From: a bacterium
GTDB lineage: Bacteria > Patescibacteriota > Patescibacteriia > Patescibacteriales > Patescibacteriaceae
DNA: 35,645 nt
Direction: 5' to 3'
Assembly: GCA_029570385.1 (NCBI GenBank)
Contig: JAKPXD010000014.1
Coordinates: 1 to 35,645, forward strand
The translations under genes were made by a program, and so were the position numbers. Below, in pieces: positions 10,451 to 26,606 of the stretch; the first letter of the stretch is position 1, and each line of letters begins with the position of its first letter. Below the pieces are notes generated by a model that saw only the letters and a program-made list of their open reading frames with translations, searched no databases and was not told the DNA's origin.

Positions 10451-10505
10451 GATTATAGCATAAAAATCGCCGAGCGAAAAATTAACCAATCAGTTATTGA
10501 CAACA

Positions 10506-10535
10506 ATGACAATTAAGGGTAGTTTGAAATAATAC
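10506..10535 (+). promoter_or_regulatory. Possible promoter for the hairpin-rich gene at 10576
   Basis: ATGACA (10506-10511), an 18 nt spacer and TAATAC (10530-10535). A perfect TTGACA at 10497-10502 has no -10 at the right distance. The site faces away from the clpB promoter. Confidence 0.35.
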
Positions 10536-10569
10536 TAGTGTACCTAAAAAATAAATACAATAAAAGGAG

Positions 10570-11141
10570 GAGATCATGGAAATATCCAAAAATCTCGCCG
10601 TTCAGATTGTGAATAGCGCCTGCCAGGACTTCGAGCAACTGGTTGCTCAACGGGTGGCGCTAAGTTCAAAAGCGAAAAAAATAGCCAGTCGGCTAAAAAT
10701 TTGGATGAAAATTAACAAAATAACCCTAGTTTTGTTATTTTTGTCCTTAATTAACTGTCTAATATTGGCCTTGTTTATCAACAAGGTGGGCAGACAAGCA
10801 TTTACACTGAGCATGAACATAACGCTCAGTGTAGTAATGGTAAATCTGGTTCCATTACTAGTAAATGTCTACCTGTCTGGCAAAGAAAAAGCCTGTAAAC
10901 AGGCACTCCAAATAATTGCCGCTGGGCGGCTCAGTTATATCAGGAGAATCATTAGCCGAGCTTTGTTGGCGCACATATGCGTCAACGAAGATGACGAAAC
11001 CGTAGAATACTGTTTCCAGCGATTGAAAGAAATTATCAGCGGCTTCTACGCTGATAATTTCGAATCTTCCTTAACCAAGGAAGAAATCGCCGCAATTAGA
11101 AGCTGGCTAGAAACCAGCTTCTCAGCCCGTCCTCGGGCTGA
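10570..11141 (+). repeat. Array of consecutive perfect hairpins spanning an entire gene
   Basis: Stem arms read by eye: 10570-10574/10592-10596 (encloses the ATG), 10596-10604/10610-10618 (one mismatch), 10633-10638/10643-10648, 10682-10686/10691-10695, 10698-10702/10709-10713, 10713-10720/10730-10737, 10756-10760/10792-10796 around 10769-10775/10780-10786, 10803-10812/10824-10833, 10832-10840/10852-10860, 10891-10895/10900-10904, 10918-10922/10926-10930, 10961-10973/10978-10990 (two G-U), 10996-11004/11008-11016 (one mismatch), 11029-11041/11049-11061 (13 bp perfect), 11065-11072/11077-11084, 11098-11106/11114-11122 and 11122-11129/11134-11141. Roughly half of the bases are in stems. Confidence 0.85.
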
Positions 11142-11145
11142 TTAA
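10576..11145 (+). CDS. Orphan two-helix membrane protein encoded by a hairpin-rich gene
   Basis: The 189-residue protein is not recognised. Residues 1-45 are helical and basic. Two membrane helices lie at about 47-68 (ITLVLLFLSLINCLILALFI) and 77-100 (LSMNITLSVVMVNLVPLLVN). A cytoplasmic-looking C-terminal domain contains RRIISRALLAHICV and an acidic DDETVEYCF. It has a strong ribosome binding site (AAAGGAGG at about 10563-10569), rare in this window, and its own terminator 15 nt after the stop. The coding sequence is almost a continuous run of short perfect inverted repeats, listed under the repeat feature. Protein sequence and frame look normal, so I take it as a translated gene. It lies between clpB and the alkylation-repair genes. 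A regulatory or stress role is a guess. Confidence 0.7.
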   Translation: MEISKNLAVQIVNSACQDFEQLVAQRVALSSKAKKIASRLKIWMKINKITLVLLFLSLINCLILALFINKVGRQAFTLSMNITLSVVMVNLVPLLVNVYLSGKEKACKQALQIIAAGRLSYIRRIISRALLAHICVNEDDETVEYCFQRLKEIISGFYADNFESSLTKEEIAAIRSWLETSFSARPRAD

Positions 11146-11160
11146 CCACAAACACTTTAT

Positions 11161-11190
11161 AAGGCCTCCCTAGGGAGGCCTTTTTATTTT
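11161..11190 (+). terminator. Rho-independent terminator of the hairpin-rich gene
   Basis: AAGGCCTCCC (11161-11170), loop TA and GGGAGGCCTT (11173-11182) form a perfect stem that runs into the T tract TTTTTATTTT. It separates the orphan gene from the ogt-alkD-wecG unit. Confidence 0.95.
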
Positions 11191-13076: not shown

Positions 13077-13469
13077 CTATTTAAGCCCATTCTTTTTGAT
13101 TTTGTCCCAAGCTAATCTGGTAATAGCTTGGGGTGGGCTGACCCGAAATACATGGCCAGTGTCCAGACTAAAGGTCTGGTAATACTGGCCATCATAAATG
13201 GCTACTAGGACAGTATTGTATGAAGAGCCAAGTTCTTCATACAAATCAATGATATTTTTAATAACAATCTCATTGTTACGAGATTGTATTTGGTTACGGT
13301 CAGTTAGTCCGGCACAATGGTGCGCCGTATACAGACCGCTACTGGTGCCATACCAGACTACATCTGGATAGCACCGTGACTGGTATTTAAAATTAACGCG
13401 ACCTGTTGACTGACCAGCTAACATTAAGCTGATAGTTAACAGGATTATTAATGTACAAATTCTGCTCAT
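13077..13469 (-). CDS. Orphan secreted protein encoded by a hairpin-rich gene
   Basis: I chose the ATG at 13469 because AAAGGAGG lies 8 nt upstream; the longer frame to 13532 would read through the promoter. The 130-residue product starts MSRICTLIILLTISLMLAGQS, a signal peptide with no lipobox Cys. The mature part has two Cys (SRCYPD and HHCAGL), a Tyr-rich middle and a basic C-terminus, WDKIKKNGLK. I recognise no family and it is not similar to the orphan protein at 10576. It has its own sigma70-type promoter and terminator. As in that gene, the coding sequence is a run of inverted repeats. Confidence in the reading frame is moderate to good, in the function none. Confidence 0.68.
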   Translation of the reverse strand: MSRICTLIILLTISLMLAGQSTGRVNFKYQSRCYPDVVWYGTSSGLYTAHHCAGLTDRNQIQSRNNEIVIKNIIDLYEELGSSYNTVLVAIYDGQYYQTFSLDTGHVFRVSPPQAITRLAWDKIKKNGLK

Positions 13470-13498
13470 TTTTTTAACCTCCTTTTTTTTGACAGAAT
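13084..13498 (-). repeat. Array of consecutive and nested hairpins spanning an entire gene
   Basis: Perfect stem arms: 13084-13089/13134-13139 around 13106-13114/13124-13132; 13152-13160/13184-13192 around 13163-13168/13174-13179; 13216-13226/13234-13244 (11 bp); 13264-13271/13280-13287; 13295-13299/13325-13329; 13344-13348/13371-13375 around 13353-13357/13363-13367; 13402-13407/13438-13443 around 13415-13419/13427-13431; 13459-13464/13493-13498, which encloses both the AGGAGG and the ATG. About 40 percent of the bases are in stems. Confidence 0.82.
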
Positions 13499-13504
13499 AA
13501 CCAT

Positions 13505-13532
13505 ATATTACTAAAACCAATAGTTTTGTCAA
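13505..13532 (-). promoter_or_regulatory. Promoter of the minus-strand hairpin-rich gene
   Basis: TTGACA (13527-13532), a 16 nt spacer and TAATAT (13505-13510). Its -35 is only 6 bp from the -35 of the divergent gltX promoter. Confidence 0.65.
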
Positions 13533-15098: not shown

Positions 15099-16361
15099 AT
15101 GAAAAACTGTCGCTATCAAAAAATATTATCAGGCAGCCTAATAATCATTAGTTTGTCTTTATTTTTATGCTTGGTTGCTTATCATCCACAGCCAGCGCGC
15201 GGCAGCTACGAAGACGAGGTTAATCAACTTAATAGCCAAATTAACGCTAAAAAAAACTCCCTAACCAAGCTGCGCGACCAACAACGCTATTATCAGCAAT
15301 TAGTGGCTGAAAAACAAAGTGAAAAAGCCACTCTCAATAACCAACTGACCATTCTGGATAGTAAAATCGCTGAAGCTGAATTAGATATACAGGGCACTGA
15401 GCTGGAAATGGAACAAACCAATTTAGAATTACGCAGCCTAGAGCTAGAAATTGCCGATAAAGACCAATCAATTGACCAAAATAAAACCAAGCTCGGTAAT
15501 CTGCTCAAAACCATTAATCAGCAGGGGAGCAAAAGCGCTCTGGAGATTATCTTATTAAACGATTCTTTTTCCGAATTCTTAAATGAAATCAAGTATCTTA
15601 ACGATATTAGTAGCGGTGTTCGCGATCAATTAGAAGATTTGCGGAAACTTAAAAATTCTCTGGAAGAACAACAAGCCGCCTTAGATATCAAGCATCAGCA
15701 ATTGGCTGAATTGCAAAAAGTTCTAGCTGACAAAAGAAATTCATTAGACCAAGAAAAACAAGATAAAAGCTTTATTCTCGAGCAGACTCAGCTGTCAGAA
15801 AGTCAGTATCAAAATCTGCTGGCGGCGGCGAAACAAGAACAGGCTCAAGCTAATGCTGAAATCAGTAGTTTGGAAAAAAGCGTCCGGCAAAAATTGGCCC
15901 TGATTGAAGCTAATAAACCTAAGACCAATCAAAAAAAATCTAGTAGCAATAGTTCATCCGGTCTAATTTGGCCAGTGCCAAAAAATTACGTTAGCACTTA
16001 TTTTCATGATCCAGAATATCCTTTCCGCTACCTTTTTGAGCACCCGGCCATTGATATCCGCGCCAGCCAAGGAACGGCCGTAGTGGCCGCCAGTAATGGC
16101 TATGTGGCCGCCGCTAAAGATGCCGGCATGGGTTATAGCTATATTATGATTGTTCACGATAATGGCCTAGCCACGGTTTACGGCCATATTTCTAGGATTG
16201 CCACTAAAGAAGACGCCTATGTGACCGCCGGCCAAGTGATTGGCTACAGCGGCGGCATGCCTGGCACGCCTGGTGCCGGTAAATTAACCACCGGACCGCA
16301 TTTGCATTTTGAAGTCCGTCTCAACGGCATTCCAGTTGATCCTTTAGCTTATCTACCTTAA
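15099..16361 (+). CDS. Murein hydrolase / activator with coiled coil and M23 peptidase domain
   Basis: EnvC-like proteins cut peptidoglycan cross-links or activate amidases during cell separation. The 420-residue product has an N-terminal signal or anchor (about residues 10-35). A long coiled coil follows (about 38-265, with many Glu, Gln, Lys and Leu), then a Ser-rich linker. The M23 domain covers about 290-420. The zinc ligands and catalytic residues look intact: HPAIDIRAS with the first His and Asp, YGHISRI, and the HLHFEVRLNG motif. A degenerate EnvC-type activator would lack them, so enzymatic activity is likely. It lies 5 nt upstream of the pseudopilin gene. Confidence 0.93.
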   Translation: MKNCRYQKILSGSLIIISLSLFLCLVAYHPQPARGSYEDEVNQLNSQINAKKNSLTKLRDQQRYYQQLVAEKQSEKATLNNQLTILDSKIAEAELDIQGTELEMEQTNLELRSLELEIADKDQSIDQNKTKLGNLLKTINQQGSKSALEIILLNDSFSEFLNEIKYLNDISSGVRDQLEDLRKLKNSLEEQQAALDIKHQQLAELQKVLADKRNSLDQEKQDKSFILEQTQLSESQYQNLLAAAKQEQAQANAEISSLEKSVRQKLALIEANKPKTNQKKSSSNSSSGLIWPVPKNYVSTYFHDPEYPFRYLFEHPAIDIRASQGTAVVAASNGYVAAAKDAGMGYSYIMIVHDNGLATVYGHISRIATKEDAYVTAGQVIGYSGGMPGTPGAGKLTTGPHLHFEVRLNGIPVDPLAYLP

Positions 16362-23288: not shown

Positions 23289-26200
23289 TTAATCGTAATC
23301 TTTATTCTCAGCCTCAAGATAATATCCACCTTCTCTGTTATAAAGTTCTCCTAATTTGTTTTGGACTTTTTGGAGCGGGAAAACTTCTAAATCATTATTA
23401 TGGGGACCTTGAATAATTGTTTGGATGCCAGAAGATTGAGCATAATTATTCACAAAACGAGCAATATTATCGCTAATTTGCTGACCGTAATCTACGGAAT
23501 ACTCGGTATTGGCCTCAATATTATCAATAACCATAATCGGCTCACCGGTCGGGCTGTTTTCGCCGATAAATGTCCAGCAAACAACTACTGGAACATTCTT
23601 TTTTTCATCATAAACTACAATATTTTGTATGCCTAAATCAGTCACATAATCGGCAATTGGCGACTCAGCGCCATGATGGGCGCTATCAATACAAATACAG
23701 CATGGACAATAATTACCTAAATAAAGATCTTGCGTGCTGCGAGAAGCAATCGCTACTCTCATTTCTCGACCCTTTAATTTATTATCCGCTTCTCGGTCAT
23801 TAAAAATACTTTTAAGAGTGTCCTTGTCAGTATTATAATGATGCAACTCTTCACCAACCACCTCAACGCTTTCCTGCAATAGAGCATCGGCGCGATCTTG
23901 GCCTAAAATCGGAGCAATTAATTCCGCCAATTTAGCCTGATAGGTATCAAAAAATGCTTCAAATTCAATAAAATTAACCTTTAATTGAGCTATGTTTTTT
24001 TGTAATTGATCTTTTTCTTTAATTAAGCTGGCGCGATCTTTAATATTTTCCAAATTAGCCTCATTTTCGGCGCAAAGATCATAAAATTTAAAGATATTGT
24101 CCATCATTGATCGTAACCTAAAGATATCGCTTTGAATTCGGCTCCAAGCATTGACTGGTTTTAACTTATCAATTTTAGTCTGCAAACTAATAATCCCCTG
24201 ATTCATGCCCTGTTTTTTTTGTTCGTTAGGTTCATTCGCCATTCTAGCTTGTAATTCATTAATCTTCTGACGCAATTCGGCTTCTTCCGGATTAGAAATA
24301 AACGAAGCTTGTAATTCAGCCTTGTAATCAGTCAGCACATTGGTAATTGACGCTTTGTACCGATCCAAAGTTTCTTTAACGCGAATTATTGGTGTTTTTA
24401 TTTTGTCAGAGAATTTAACATCTTCTTGCTCGCCCAAAGTAAAATAAAGCTGTTCATTATAATTGAGCCATTGCTCAACATTAACTCCGCGCCTTGTTAA
24501 TTCATTTAAAATATCCGCATTGTTCCCAAACTCCGTTAAATGGTTTTGCATTAAACGCCTAAATTCTAACGATTGTTTATCTACATCGGGATGATCTTGA
24601 ATTATCTTTGTTTCCGCATCAAATAGCTCCTTAATCTCTTGTTGAGCAGTTGGATCAAATTGGTAATATTTCATGGCCAATCGAATACCATAGCGAGGAT
24701 TATCGTCAATAGCTTTAATTAAAAATGGATTACCCTTAAGGCTCTGCTCAATCTTTGTTAAGTTGTCTTCATAGCTAAAGAGATTAAGCAATAATTCTGC
24801 GGAATTAGCTAGATACTTCACTAAATTTGGTAATTGACTCTCTAGCTTTGTAAAAAAATCTGGATAAATATTTTTCATCCCAGAATAAAAATCTAAAGAA
24901 GATAAGTGAAATTTGTCTAAACAACCAATTATTGAATAACGTTGTCCGTCCTCAATAAGTCTTAAAGCTATATCTTGATTCAAACAACCGCTAATTTTAT
25001 CTAAATTGCGGGCGAATGAATAACCTTCTCCAGCCTCAATAAGCCTCAAGGCTATATCGTTATAGTCCAAGCCGCTAAATTTGCCTAAGTTATAAACGAC
25101 TGAACCACCTTCTCCAGCTTTAATAAGCCTGATGGCTATATCGTTATGATCCAGACCACTAAATTTATCTAGATTATCAGCAACTGAACTACCTTCTCTA
25201 GCCTCAATAAGTTTTAAAGCTATATCGTTATAGTCCAAGTTGCTAAATTTATCTAGGTTACGGGCCACTGAACCACCGTTGTCAGTCTCAATAAGTCTCA
25301 AGGCTATGTCGTTATGATTCAAACCGCTAAATTTGTCTAGGTTACAGATGATTGAATAACCTTCTCCGGCCTCCATAAGTCTCAAGGCTATGTCGTTATG
25401 ATTCAAACCGCTAAATTTGTCTAGGTTACGGGCGATTGAGTCACCCTTTCCGGCCTCAATTATTTTAAGAGCTATATCTTTATGATCTAGACCTCTAAAT
25501 TTATCTAGGTTACTAGCAACTGAATCACCGTATCCGGCATTAATTATTTGAATGGCTATATCGCTATGATCCAAACCGCTAAATTTGTCTAAATTATAAG
25601 CAACTGAACCACCATTGCCAGCTTCAATAAGTCTGAGAGCTATGTCTTTATGGCCTAGACCAGTAAATTTGTCTAGGTTACTAGCGACTGAACCACCATT
25701 GCCAGTCTCAATAAGTCTTAAAGCTATATCTTGATTCAAACAACCGCTAAATTTATCTAAATTACGGGTAATTGAATCACCATTTCCAGCCTCAATTATT
25801 TTAAGAGCTGTGTCTTTATGGTCTAGACCAGTAAATTTATCTAAATTACTGGCAACTGAATAACCTTCTCCAGCTTTAATAAGTCTGAGAGCTATATCGC
25901 TATGATCCAGACCGCTAAACTTATCTAGGTTATCAGCAACTGAACTACCTTCTCTAGCCTCAATAAGTTTTAAAGCTATGTCGTTATAGTCCAAGCCGCT
26001 AAATTTATCTAGGTTACTGGCGACTGAACCACCGTTGCCAGTCTCAATAAGTCTTAAGGCTATGTCTTGATTCAAACAACTGTTAAATTTATCTAAGTTA
26101 CGGGCGACTGAACCACCTTCTCCAGCCTCAATAAGCCTGATAGCTATATCGCTATGATCCAGACCACTAAATTTATCTAGATTATCAGCAACTGAACTAC

Positions 26201-26606
26201 CTTCTCTAGCCTCAATAAGTTTTAAAGCTATATCGTTATAGTCCAAGTTGCTAAATTTATCTAGGTTACTGGCGACTGAACCACCGTTGCCAGTCTCAAT
26301 AAGCCTTAAGGCTATGTCGTTATGATCTAAGCCGCTAAATTTGTCTAGGTTACGGGCGATTAAACGACCTTCTCCGGCTTCAATTATTTTAAGAGCTATG
26401 TCGTTATAATTCAGACCGCTAAATTTGTCTAGGTTGCTGACAACTGAATAACTTTCTCCAGCTTCAATAAGTCTGAGGGCTATGTCGTGGTGGTCCAAAT
26501 CAACGAATTCATTGGGATTAAAACCAACATCTTCAATAATCTGCAAAATCGCTTCTTGGTCATTAATTTTTTCCGCCAATGGTTGATTAATATTTTCTTT
26601 AATCAT
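23289..26606 (-). CDS. Giant repeat protein: nineteen 28-residue helical repeats, coiled coil, Cys-rich C-terminal domain
   Basis: The 1105-residue protein belongs to no family I recognise. After a 36-residue N-terminus, residues 37-568 are 19 gapless repeats of 28 residues, typically LDHNDIALRLIEAG, two or three variable residues, and SVASNLDKFSG. Each reads as helix, Gly-rich turn, helix. Residues of about 570-740 are helical, and 740-930 are coiled-coil-like (ELRQKINELQARMANEPNEQ). Residues of about 961-1105 form a compact domain with NYCPCCICIDSAHHG, VVVCWTFIGE and VIDNIEAN. No signal peptide or membrane helix is present, so it is cytoplasmic. It starts 7 nt after the membrane Clp ATPase and probably shares its transcript. 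A solenoid adaptor or binding protein is a reasonable guess; a recognition role is discussed in the findings. Confidence 0.85.
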   Translation of the reverse strand: MIKENINQPLAEKINDQEAILQIIEDVGFNPNEFVDLDHHDIALRLIEAGESYSVVSNLDKFSGLNYNDIALKIIEAGEGRLIARNLDKFSGLDHNDIALRLIETGNGGSVASNLDKFSNLDYNDIALKLIEAREGSSVADNLDKFSGLDHSDIAIRLIEAGEGGSVARNLDKFNSCLNQDIALRLIETGNGGSVASNLDKFSGLDYNDIALKLIEAREGSSVADNLDKFSGLDHSDIALRLIKAGEGYSVASNLDKFTGLDHKDTALKIIEAGNGDSITRNLDKFSGCLNQDIALRLIETGNGGSVASNLDKFTGLGHKDIALRLIEAGNGGSVAYNLDKFSGLDHSDIAIQIINAGYGDSVASNLDKFRGLDHKDIALKIIEAGKGDSIARNLDKFSGLNHNDIALRLMEAGEGYSIICNLDKFSGLNHNDIALRLIETDNGGSVARNLDKFSNLDYNDIALKLIEAREGSSVADNLDKFSGLDHNDIAIRLIKAGEGGSVVYNLGKFSGLDYNDIALRLIEAGEGYSFARNLDKISGCLNQDIALRLIEDGQRYSIIGCLDKFHLSSLDFYSGMKNIYPDFFTKLESQLPNLVKYLANSAELLLNLFSYEDNLTKIEQSLKGNPFLIKAIDDNPRYGIRLAMKYYQFDPTAQQEIKELFDAETKIIQDHPDVDKQSLEFRRLMQNHLTEFGNNADILNELTRRGVNVEQWLNYNEQLYFTLGEQEDVKFSDKIKTPIIRVKETLDRYKASITNVLTDYKAELQASFISNPEEAELRQKINELQARMANEPNEQKKQGMNQGIISLQTKIDKLKPVNAWSRIQSDIFRLRSMMDNIFKFYDLCAENEANLENIKDRASLIKEKDQLQKNIAQLKVNFIEFEAFFDTYQAKLAELIAPILGQDRADALLQESVEVVGEELHHYNTDKDTLKSIFNDREADNKLKGREMRVAIASRSTQDLYLGNYCPCCICIDSAHHGAESPIADYVTDLGIQNIVVYDEKKNVPVVVCWTFIGENSPTGEPIMVIDNIEANTEYSVDYGQQISDNIARFVNNYAQSSGIQTIIQGPHNNDLEVFPLQKVQNKLGELYNREGGYYLEAENKDYD
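24903..26498 (-). repeat. 19 tandem 84 bp coding repeats
   Basis: The period is exactly 84 bp with no indels. Some units are nearly identical in DNA: units 4, 7 and 16 (AREGSSVADNLDKF) differ by only a few bases. Blocks of three units (GNGGSVASN, AREGSSVADN, then a LDHSDI or LDHNDI unit) recur at units 3-5, 6-8 and 15-17. Units 6, 10 and 19 share the CLNQDIALRLIE start. Confidence 0.95.

What the first reader, a model, noticed from the sequence alone, without database searches (positions are those of the whole stretch)
10570..11182. A whole gene written as consecutive perfect hairpins (orphan membrane protein)
From before the start codon to the terminator, the DNA is one local inverted repeat after another: at least 17 stems of 5-13 bp, many with 4 nt loops, adjacent or sharing an end base. 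Examples are a 13 bp perfect stem at 11029-11061, a 13 bp stem with two G-U pairs at 10961-10990 and a 10 bp stem at 10803-10833. Yet it encodes a plausible two-helix membrane protein. The imperfect pairs I found (10964/10987, 10969/10982, 10600/10614, 10802/10834) are all U-G in the sense RNA, which hints that structure is kept at the mRNA level. The neighbouring core genes do not look like this by eye. I know of no described gene class of this kind. Possible meanings: an mRNA built to resist decay or to be switched, a dsRNA-like decoy, DNA that must fold when single-stranded, or repeated template-switch correction of quasi-palindromes.
Basis: seen in the sequence. Interest (0 to 1): 0.93.

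Follow-up and report, generated by a model that had tools for sequence, protein, structure and literature searches.

The report
Bacterial gene class built from hairpins
The gene really is a chain of RNA hairpins, and it is one of about 15-20 such genes in a tiny bacterial genome that also share an rRNA-type leader signal and a strong ribosome-binding site that ordinary genes there lack, which looks like an undescribed way of making messenger RNA.

Summary
The 189-codon gene at 10576-11145 folds at -187 kcal/mol, against -117 +/- 7.6 for 500 shuffles keeping protein and codon usage (z = -9.2).

It is not alone. A whole-genome scan found 17 such genes in this 0.65-Mb genome, another being 13077-13469(-) in the window, and about 20 in a same-genus genome. 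All 11 with a reciprocal-best orthologue there stay hairpin-rich despite 22-72% protein identity. Relatives in other phyla are not hairpin-rich. The signal runs from just after the start codon to the terminator and is absent from divergent intergenic DNA.

The class has a second, independent mark. It carries a strong Shine-Dalgarno (>=6 nt: 13/19 hairpin-rich vs 5/537 other genes, p = 3e-18), a TTGACA promoter and a leader motif matching boxA, also found in the genus's 16S leader. Structure is maintained: relocating the observed substitutions destroys the fold (mean z -4.3 vs -0.3 in controls), although individual stems turn over with no excess of compensatory pairs.

Best explanation: selection for a locally folded mRNA, transcribed in rRNA-like (boxA/Nus) fashion and opened by a strong Shine-Dalgarno. 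What the folding is for (stability or storage most likely) is inferred. Function remains unproven.

The parts
10506..10533 (+). Promoter-like site (ATGACA - 16 nt - AATAAT); a TTGACA also lies just upstream, about 10498-10503
   Evidence: consensus scan, 10 of 12 matches; TTGACA within 150 nt in 11/15 hairpin vs 16/169 other transcription-unit-first genes of this genome
10540..10551 (+). boxA-like leader motif GTACCTAAAAAA
   Evidence: motif found without supervision in leaders of hairpin genes; focal score 8.5, control leaders 99th percentile 6.3; same string in both same-genus orthologues; own genus 16S leader scores 7.5
10564..10570 (+). Strong Shine-Dalgarno AAGGAGG
   Evidence: 7-nt match to the complement of the 16S tail GGATCACCTCCTTTCT present in G000; SD >=6 in 13/19 hairpin genes, 5/537 others
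10576..11145 (+). Hairpin-dense ORF, 189 aa, predicted all-helical membrane protein (two hydrophobic segments)
   Evidence: z = -9.2 vs 500 codon-preserving shuffles; orthologues in two same-genus genomes, next to the same MGMT-like gene
10703..10746 (+). Stem 10 bp enclosing a further 8 bp stem 10714-10736
10803..10833 (+). Perfect 10 bp hairpin
10961..10990 (+). 13 bp hairpin with two G-U pairs
11029..11061 (+). Perfect 13 bp hairpin
11065..11084 (+). 8 bp hairpin, 4 nt loop
11098..11122 (+). 9 bp hairpin
11122..11141 (+). 8 bp hairpin, 4 nt loop, sharing its first base with the previous stem
11161..11190 (+). Intrinsic terminator (9 bp stem, T tail); the class signal falls to background 50-100 nt after the stop
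13077..13469 (-). Second hairpin-dense gene of the window (130 aa, lipoprotein-like start), true start at codon 22 of the ORF 13077-13532
   Evidence: z = -8.1 vs 100 codon-preserving shuffles; SD AAGGAGGT at 13477-13484; promoter-like TTGACA-16-TAATAT 13532-13505

Best explanation
SHOWN: this is one member of a class of about 15-20 mostly single-gene transcription units, conserved within one genus, in which the whole ORF is under selection to fold into short local hairpins (base-pair span up to about 40 nt). The same genes carry a TTGACA promoter, often a boxA-like leader motif also found in the genus's own 16S leader, and a strong Shine-Dalgarno that most genes of these genomes lack. LIKELY: the selected object is the sense mRNA, because the signal is bounded by the transcript and the sense strand folds better than the antisense over the class. 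INFERRED mechanism: RNA polymerase is modified at boxA by NusB/S10, as on rRNA, which lets a hairpin-dense nascent RNA be made and folded without pausing or early termination. The folded body shields the message from single-strand nucleases and from unspecific ribosome entry. A strong Shine-Dalgarno in an unfolded leader is the one entry point. The result would be a stable, ribosome-independent message whose translation can be delayed or switched at the boxA/SD leader, as Nus factors do at E. coli suhB. Confidence by step: class exists and structure is maintained 0.93; acts at RNA level 0.8; boxA identity 0.65; stable or delayed message as the purpose 0.35.
For: Fold excess of the focal gene. 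Genome-wide outlier class: 17 of 567 genes at or below -1.6 against 1 of 505 genes around HppA homologues of many phyla. 11 of 11 reciprocal-best orthologues in G010 at or below -1.0, where 31 of 604 genes are; 5 of 5 in G011 hairpin-rich. Signal confined to ORF plus terminator; 0 of 68 divergent intergenic regions structured. Sense folds better than antisense: in G010, with genes chosen by their G000 score, mean difference -0.30 vs 0.006, p = 0.001. Relocating the substitutions between G010 and G011 weakens the fold: z -2.9 to -7.3 vs -0.32 +/- 0.88 in controls. dS 0.51-0.62 in four genes vs control median 0.95, dN/dS 0.17-0.33. SD >=6 with hairpins: p = 3e-18 and 2e-16 in two genomes; the same link inside one protein family in other genera, p = 0.0025. 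boxA-like motif found without supervision, score 208 vs 155-178 in control leaders, present in the G010 16S leader. NusB gene present. boxA close to an SD represses translation in E. coli suhB (PMC5725501).
Against: Individual stems are not conserved: single and double changes keep pairs no better than in control genes, and pairs kept are only mildly above permutation (mean z 1.55). boxA is clear in only about half of the class and weak in the second window gene. Rho was not found in any of 13 family genomes, so the classic anti-Rho reason for boxA does not apply. Codon usage of the class is near uniform, also at unpaired positions, which argues against high expression. No transcript, probing or half-life data exist here. 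Only five gene pairs were available for the substitution test, and its two directions are not independent.
Confidence: 0.4

Rival explanations
1. DNA-level mutation: template switching or quasi-palindrome correction keeps perfecting inverted repeats in poorly constrained genes, with no selected function.
For: Many stems are perfect and lineage-specific, often with changes clustered in one arm; stems turn over without excess compensation; both strands fold strongly; several of these genes evolve fast. PMC6649704 proposes such conversion for coding palindromes of nematomorph mitochondria.
Against: Divergent intergenic DNA is not hairpin-rich; other fast-evolving orthologue pairs at 22-35% identity are not; sense beats antisense; the class is marked by SD, promoter and boxA, which such a process cannot explain; dS is lowered in four of five genes.
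Confidence: 0.12
2. The hairpins throttle or pace translation: strong initiation at the SD is paired with slow elongation through hairpins and unfavourable codons, limiting the dose or aiding export and membrane insertion of accessory proteins.
For: Strong SD, near-uniform codon usage, many secreted, lipoprotein or membrane members including FlgD/T9-type tagged proteins.
Against: Several members are plain soluble enzymes (Nudix, DUF218); most exported proteins of the genome are not hairpin-rich; boxA is not explained.
Confidence: 0.2
3. The folded mRNA is the ligand of an RNA-binding or RNA-processing system (RNase III, a ProQ-like chaperone, or evasion of an RNA-targeting defence), so double-stranded density itself is what counts.
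For: No loop motif and no fixed stem positions, only overall density maintained.
Against: No such partner was identified here; not searched systematically.
Confidence: 0.15
4. The genes were imported from donors whose genes are naturally hairpin-dense.
For: HppA is closest to Bacteroidota among the hits listed (59% identity); codon usage is atypical; some carry T9-type tags.
Against: HppA homologues and T9SS-tagged genes of Bacteroidota are not hairpin-rich; orthologues sit at the same locus in the genus but have diverged to about 23% identity while staying hairpin-rich.
Confidence: 0.03
5. Chance, a misread non-coding RNA, or contaminating contigs.
For: The outlier is one of many genes looked at.
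Against: z = -9.2 with 0 of 500 shuffles; no Rfam family in the window except a tRNA; dN/dS 0.17-0.33 in orthologues with finite dS; same neighbour genes in two other genomes.
Confidence: 0.01

Closest known systems
boxA/Nus-factor regulated genes (rRNA operons; E. coli suhB; PMC5725501)
   Same: boxA-like element between promoter and SD, close to the SD as in suhB; same motif type in the 16S leader of the genus; NusB present
   Different: Here tied to hairpin-dense ORFs in a whole set of unrelated genes, in a family where Rho was not found; Nus binding untested
Genome-scale ordered RNA structure (GORS) of RNA viruses
   Same: Pervasive coding-region structure maintained as a whole while individual stems drift
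   Different: Cellular DNA-encoded genes, gene-by-gene rather than genome-wide, local span of about 40 nt; from general knowledge plus titles found
Coding palindromes of Nematomorpha mitochondrial genes (PMC6649704)
   Same: Perfect inverted repeats inside working protein-coding genes; gains and losses
   Different: There single long repeats up to 284 bp, all mitochondrial, with conversion suspected; here many short stems (5-13 bp), a marked subset of genes, intergenic DNA unaffected
ORF-wide mRNA structure tuning translation in E. coli operons (PMC5318159; abstract seen only)
   Same: ORF-wide units of secondary structure in bacterial mRNA
   Different: There a graded property of ordinary operon genes; here a discrete outlier class with its own leader type

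Membership tests
boxA/Nus antitermination target | boxA element in the transcribed leader, matching that of the organism's rRNA leader | tested here: met
   focal GTACCTAAAAAA 8.5 vs control leaders 99th percentile 6.3; G010 16S leader 7.5; unsupervised motif 208 vs null 155-178. Met for about half of the class; the focal one lacks the central CTTT of the consensus
boxA/Nus antitermination target | NusB (and partners) encoded | tested here: met
   NusB E = 3e-37 in G000; NusA, NusG, S10 not tested
boxA/Nus antitermination target | Protection from Rho-dependent termination | tested here: not met
   no Rho above cut-off in 13 family genomes, no hit at all in the genus; the anti-Rho role cannot apply
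boxA/Nus antitermination target | Nus complex bound to the transcript | not testable with these tools
   needs ChIP or reconstitution
GORS-like mRNA | Folding energy far beyond codon-preserving shuffles over the whole coding region | tested here: met
GORS-like mRNA | Structure on the RNA sense strand | tested here: met
   class-level sense excess p = 0.001 in G010; not visible for the focal gene alone
Conserved structured RNA (riboswitch or ncRNA type) | Fixed stems with compensatory changes, or an Rfam match | tested here: not met
   no excess compensation; no Rfam family in the window except a tRNA
Quasi-palindrome / template-switch product | Also present in unconstrained non-coding DNA | tested here: not met
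   0 of 68 divergent intergenic regions
Nematomorpha-type coding palindromes | Long perfect inverted repeats in genes | tested here: not met
   longest perfect arm in the focal gene is 13 bp

The most novel reading that the evidence does not exclude
A second class of messenger RNA exists in this bacterial lineage: rRNA-like messages, started with a boxA element, folded into a string of local hairpins and opened only at a strong Shine-Dalgarno, running beside the ordinary messages that lack a strong Shine-Dalgarno; genes entering the class acquire hairpins by synonymous change.
Probability: 0.45. Interest if true: 0.95.

Novelty: categorically new. Interest (0 to 1): 0.88.

Why it matters
It would mean that a bacterium runs two kinds of mRNA, told apart by sequence alone, and that selection can turn an ordinary gene (HppA, a Nudix enzyme) into a chain of hairpins without changing what it encodes. 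It makes testable, in a natural system, what ORF-wide structure does for stability and translation, and it gives a reason to look for rRNA-type antitermination on protein-coding genes. My literature searches found no described gene class of this kind; they cover only open-access papers.

Tried and rejected
Uniqueness of the gene: rejected by the whole-genome scan. Rfam structured RNA: no match but a tRNA in the window. Homologues by single-protein scan of genome contigs: none; profile search of 111 order genomes: real hits only in the genus, the best of the weak others (L007) being a pilin-like gene. Donor-lineage origin: rejected. Relaxed constraint as cause: rejected by many divergent non-hairpin genes. 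Neutral genome-wide mutation bias: rejected by intergenic DNA. Compensatory base changes: looked for, not in excess. Tetraloop motif or avoidance of terminator-like U tracts: none seen. Anti-Rho role of boxA: untenable, no Rho. Pfam and PDB sequence homology of the focal protein: nothing above cut-off. AlphaFold model: all-helical, mean pLDDT 71, pTM 0.47, too weak for a fold search.

Full report
OBSERVATION. The ORF 10576-11145(+) (189 aa) with its leader and terminator folds 13 standard deviations below dinucleotide shuffles and 9.2 below 500 shuffles that keep the protein and the codon usage; the best shuffle reached -141.9 against -187.2 kcal/mol. With the same kind of test no other gene among 24 of the window went beyond -4.5. 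What is unusual is not the number of helices of 5 bp or more (21, against 13-19 elsewhere) but their length: 11 of 7 bp or more, against 0-6.

IT IS A CLASS. I fetched the whole genome (654 kb, 31 contigs) and a same-genus genome G010 (700 kb) piece by piece and scored every ORF of 80 codons or more against codon-preserving shuffles. Seventeen of 567 genes in G000 lie at or below -1.6 in units of kcal/sqrt(nt) (mean -0.32, sd 0.55), with a gap below them; about 20 stand out in G010. They include Nudix enzymes, a DUF218 protein, an inositol-phosphatase-like protein, a membrane pyrophosphatase (HppA, named from its sequence and its homologues), FlgD/T9-tag secreted proteins, lipoprotein-like proteins and orphans. 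One more lies in the window, 13077-13469(-), z = -8.1. All 11 class genes of G000 with a reciprocal best hit have a partner at or below -1.0 in G010, where only 31 of 604 genes are; the five retrievable in G011 are also hairpin-rich. Many equally divergent gene pairs (22-35% identity) are not. The focal gene has about 23% protein identity to its orthologues and sits beside the same MGMT-like gene in all three genomes.

IT IS LINEAGE-SPECIFIC. Of 505 genes around 80 HppA homologues from many phyla, one reaches -1.6 and none -2, whereas the G000 HppA is at -3.6. T9SS-tagged loci of Bacteroidota and other genomes show no hairpin-rich gene (0 of 68). DUF218 homologues in other genera are ordinary.

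IT ACTS ON THE TRANSCRIPT. Averaged over the 17 genes, structure starts just inside the ORF, is weak in the first 50 nt, strong through the body, and returns to background 50-100 nt past the stop. Divergent intergenic regions, free of terminators, are not structured (0 of 68). The excess saturates at base-pair spans of 30-60 nt, so the hairpins are local. The sense strand exceeds the antisense in folding: for the 11 orthologues in G010, selected only by their G000 score, the difference is -0.30 against 0.006 in controls, p = 0.001. The focal gene alone shows no such asymmetry.

IT IS MAINTAINED, BUT STEM BY STEM IT DRIFTS. Between G010 and G011 (61-85% nt identity) compensatory double changes are not in excess and many stems are new in one lineage. 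Yet if the observed substitutions are dealt out at random within each gene (same codon position, same original base), the fold weakens by 2.9-7.3 sd (mean 4.25), against 0.32 +/- 0.88 in 25 control genes. dS is 0.51-0.62 in four of five genes (saturated in the fifth) against a control median of 0.95, and dN/dS is 0.17-0.33 where dS is finite. So the proteins are selected, synonymous sites are held back, and the quantity preserved is overall structure rather than particular stems.

A SECOND, INDEPENDENT MARK. Upstream of these genes stands a strong Shine-Dalgarno. Allowing for early alternative starts, SD of 6 nt or more occurs in 13 of 19 hairpin-rich genes (score <= -1.3) and 5 of 537 others in G000 (p = 3e-18), and 13 of 19 against 10 of 574 in G010 (p = 2e-16). 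The 16S tail with the anti-SD is present in G000. Among transcription-unit-first genes alone the contrast is 10/15 against 1/169 and 6/10 against 2/187; TTGACA within 150 nt is 11/15 against 16/169 and 5/10 against 21/187. In other genera of the order, among 12 genes of one protein family (FlgD/T9 tag), those with SD >= 6 are the hairpin-rich ones (p = 0.0025); one of them, L240, is cut by the locus edge, so its SD assignment is unsafe, and the sample is small.

A THIRD MARK. Motif discovery without supervision in 32 leaders gave GCTCCTTAACAA / TGTTCTTTAACA, score 208 against 155-178 in twelve control sets. This is the bacterial boxA (E. coli rrn TGCTCTTTAACA, from general knowledge). The 16S leader of G010 holds TGGACTTTAAAAAATA downstream of its TTGACA promoter; G011 has the same. 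The focal leader and those of both orthologues carry GTACCTAAAAAA (10540-10551 in the window), a weaker variant. NusB is encoded. About half of the class has a clear match; the second window gene does not.

MECHANISM. Shown: a marked gene class with maintained local folding of the ORF. Inferred: boxA recruits NusB/S10 to RNA polymerase so that hairpin-dense RNA is transcribed and folded as rRNA is; the body resists single-strand nucleases and unspecific ribosome entry; the open leader with its strong SD is the entry point and, as in E. coli suhB where boxA lies next to the SD and Nus factors repress translation (PMC5725501), a possible switch. The usual partner Rho was not found in 13 family genomes, so protection from Rho is not the reason. 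Near-uniform codon usage, also at unpaired positions, suggests modest expression. Throttled translation and binding of a double-strand-specific partner remain open.

NOVELTY. The closest published things are coding palindromes in nematomorph mitochondria (PMC6649704), GORS in RNA viruses, boxA-regulated genes (PMC5725501) and ORF-wide structure in E. coli operons (PMC5318159). None combines a discrete cellular gene set, ORF-wide hairpins, a separate SD class and an rRNA-type leader. The literature search was limited to open-access text.

LIMITS. All structures are predictions. The class boundary is a threshold on a continuous score. G011 was only two-thirds retrievable; compensation and permutation tests rest on five gene pairs. 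Screening scores used as few as three shuffles per gene, so individual scores shift by a few tenths between calls. The lineage is unnamed; CPR is inferred.

Noticed in passing
window 13077-13469(-): A second hairpin-dense gene with an 8-nt SD; its start is 21 codons inside the longest ORF.
   Followed up: yes
window 23289-26606(-): The first 900 nt of this ORF fold 4.5 sd below codon-preserving shuffles, though the whole gene is not in the class (score -0.92).
   Followed up: no
G000:C31:477-1814; G010:C1:37943-39232, 84650-86011, 261134-262552, C5:50488-51909: FlgD/T9SS-type C-terminal sorting tags on secreted proteins in a very small genome; such tags are found across the order. Whether a matching secretion system exists was not checked.
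   Followed up: partly
G000, G010, G011: The rho profile, which picks up ATP-synthase-like genes in the other genera of the family, finds nothing at all in these three genomes; the genus may lack F-type ATP synthase, while G000 carries a membrane pyrophosphatase.
   Followed up: no
G010:C4:112145 leader: SD GGAGGTGATCC is complementary over 11 nt to the 16S tail GGATCACCTCC, an unusually extended match.
   Followed up: no
G000:C1:14471-15361 and 15434-16198: Genus-specific inositol-phosphatase-like gene followed by a Nudix gene, both hairpin-rich; SuhB, the E. coli Nus-complex member, is of the inositol-monophosphatase family, so a link is conceivable but untested.
   Followed up: no
G010:C2 minus strand, about 4363: Leader with TTGACA, TGTTCTTTAAAA and AAGGAGG in front of a short response-regulator-like ORF that is not hairpin-rich (z -0.1).
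   Followed up: partly
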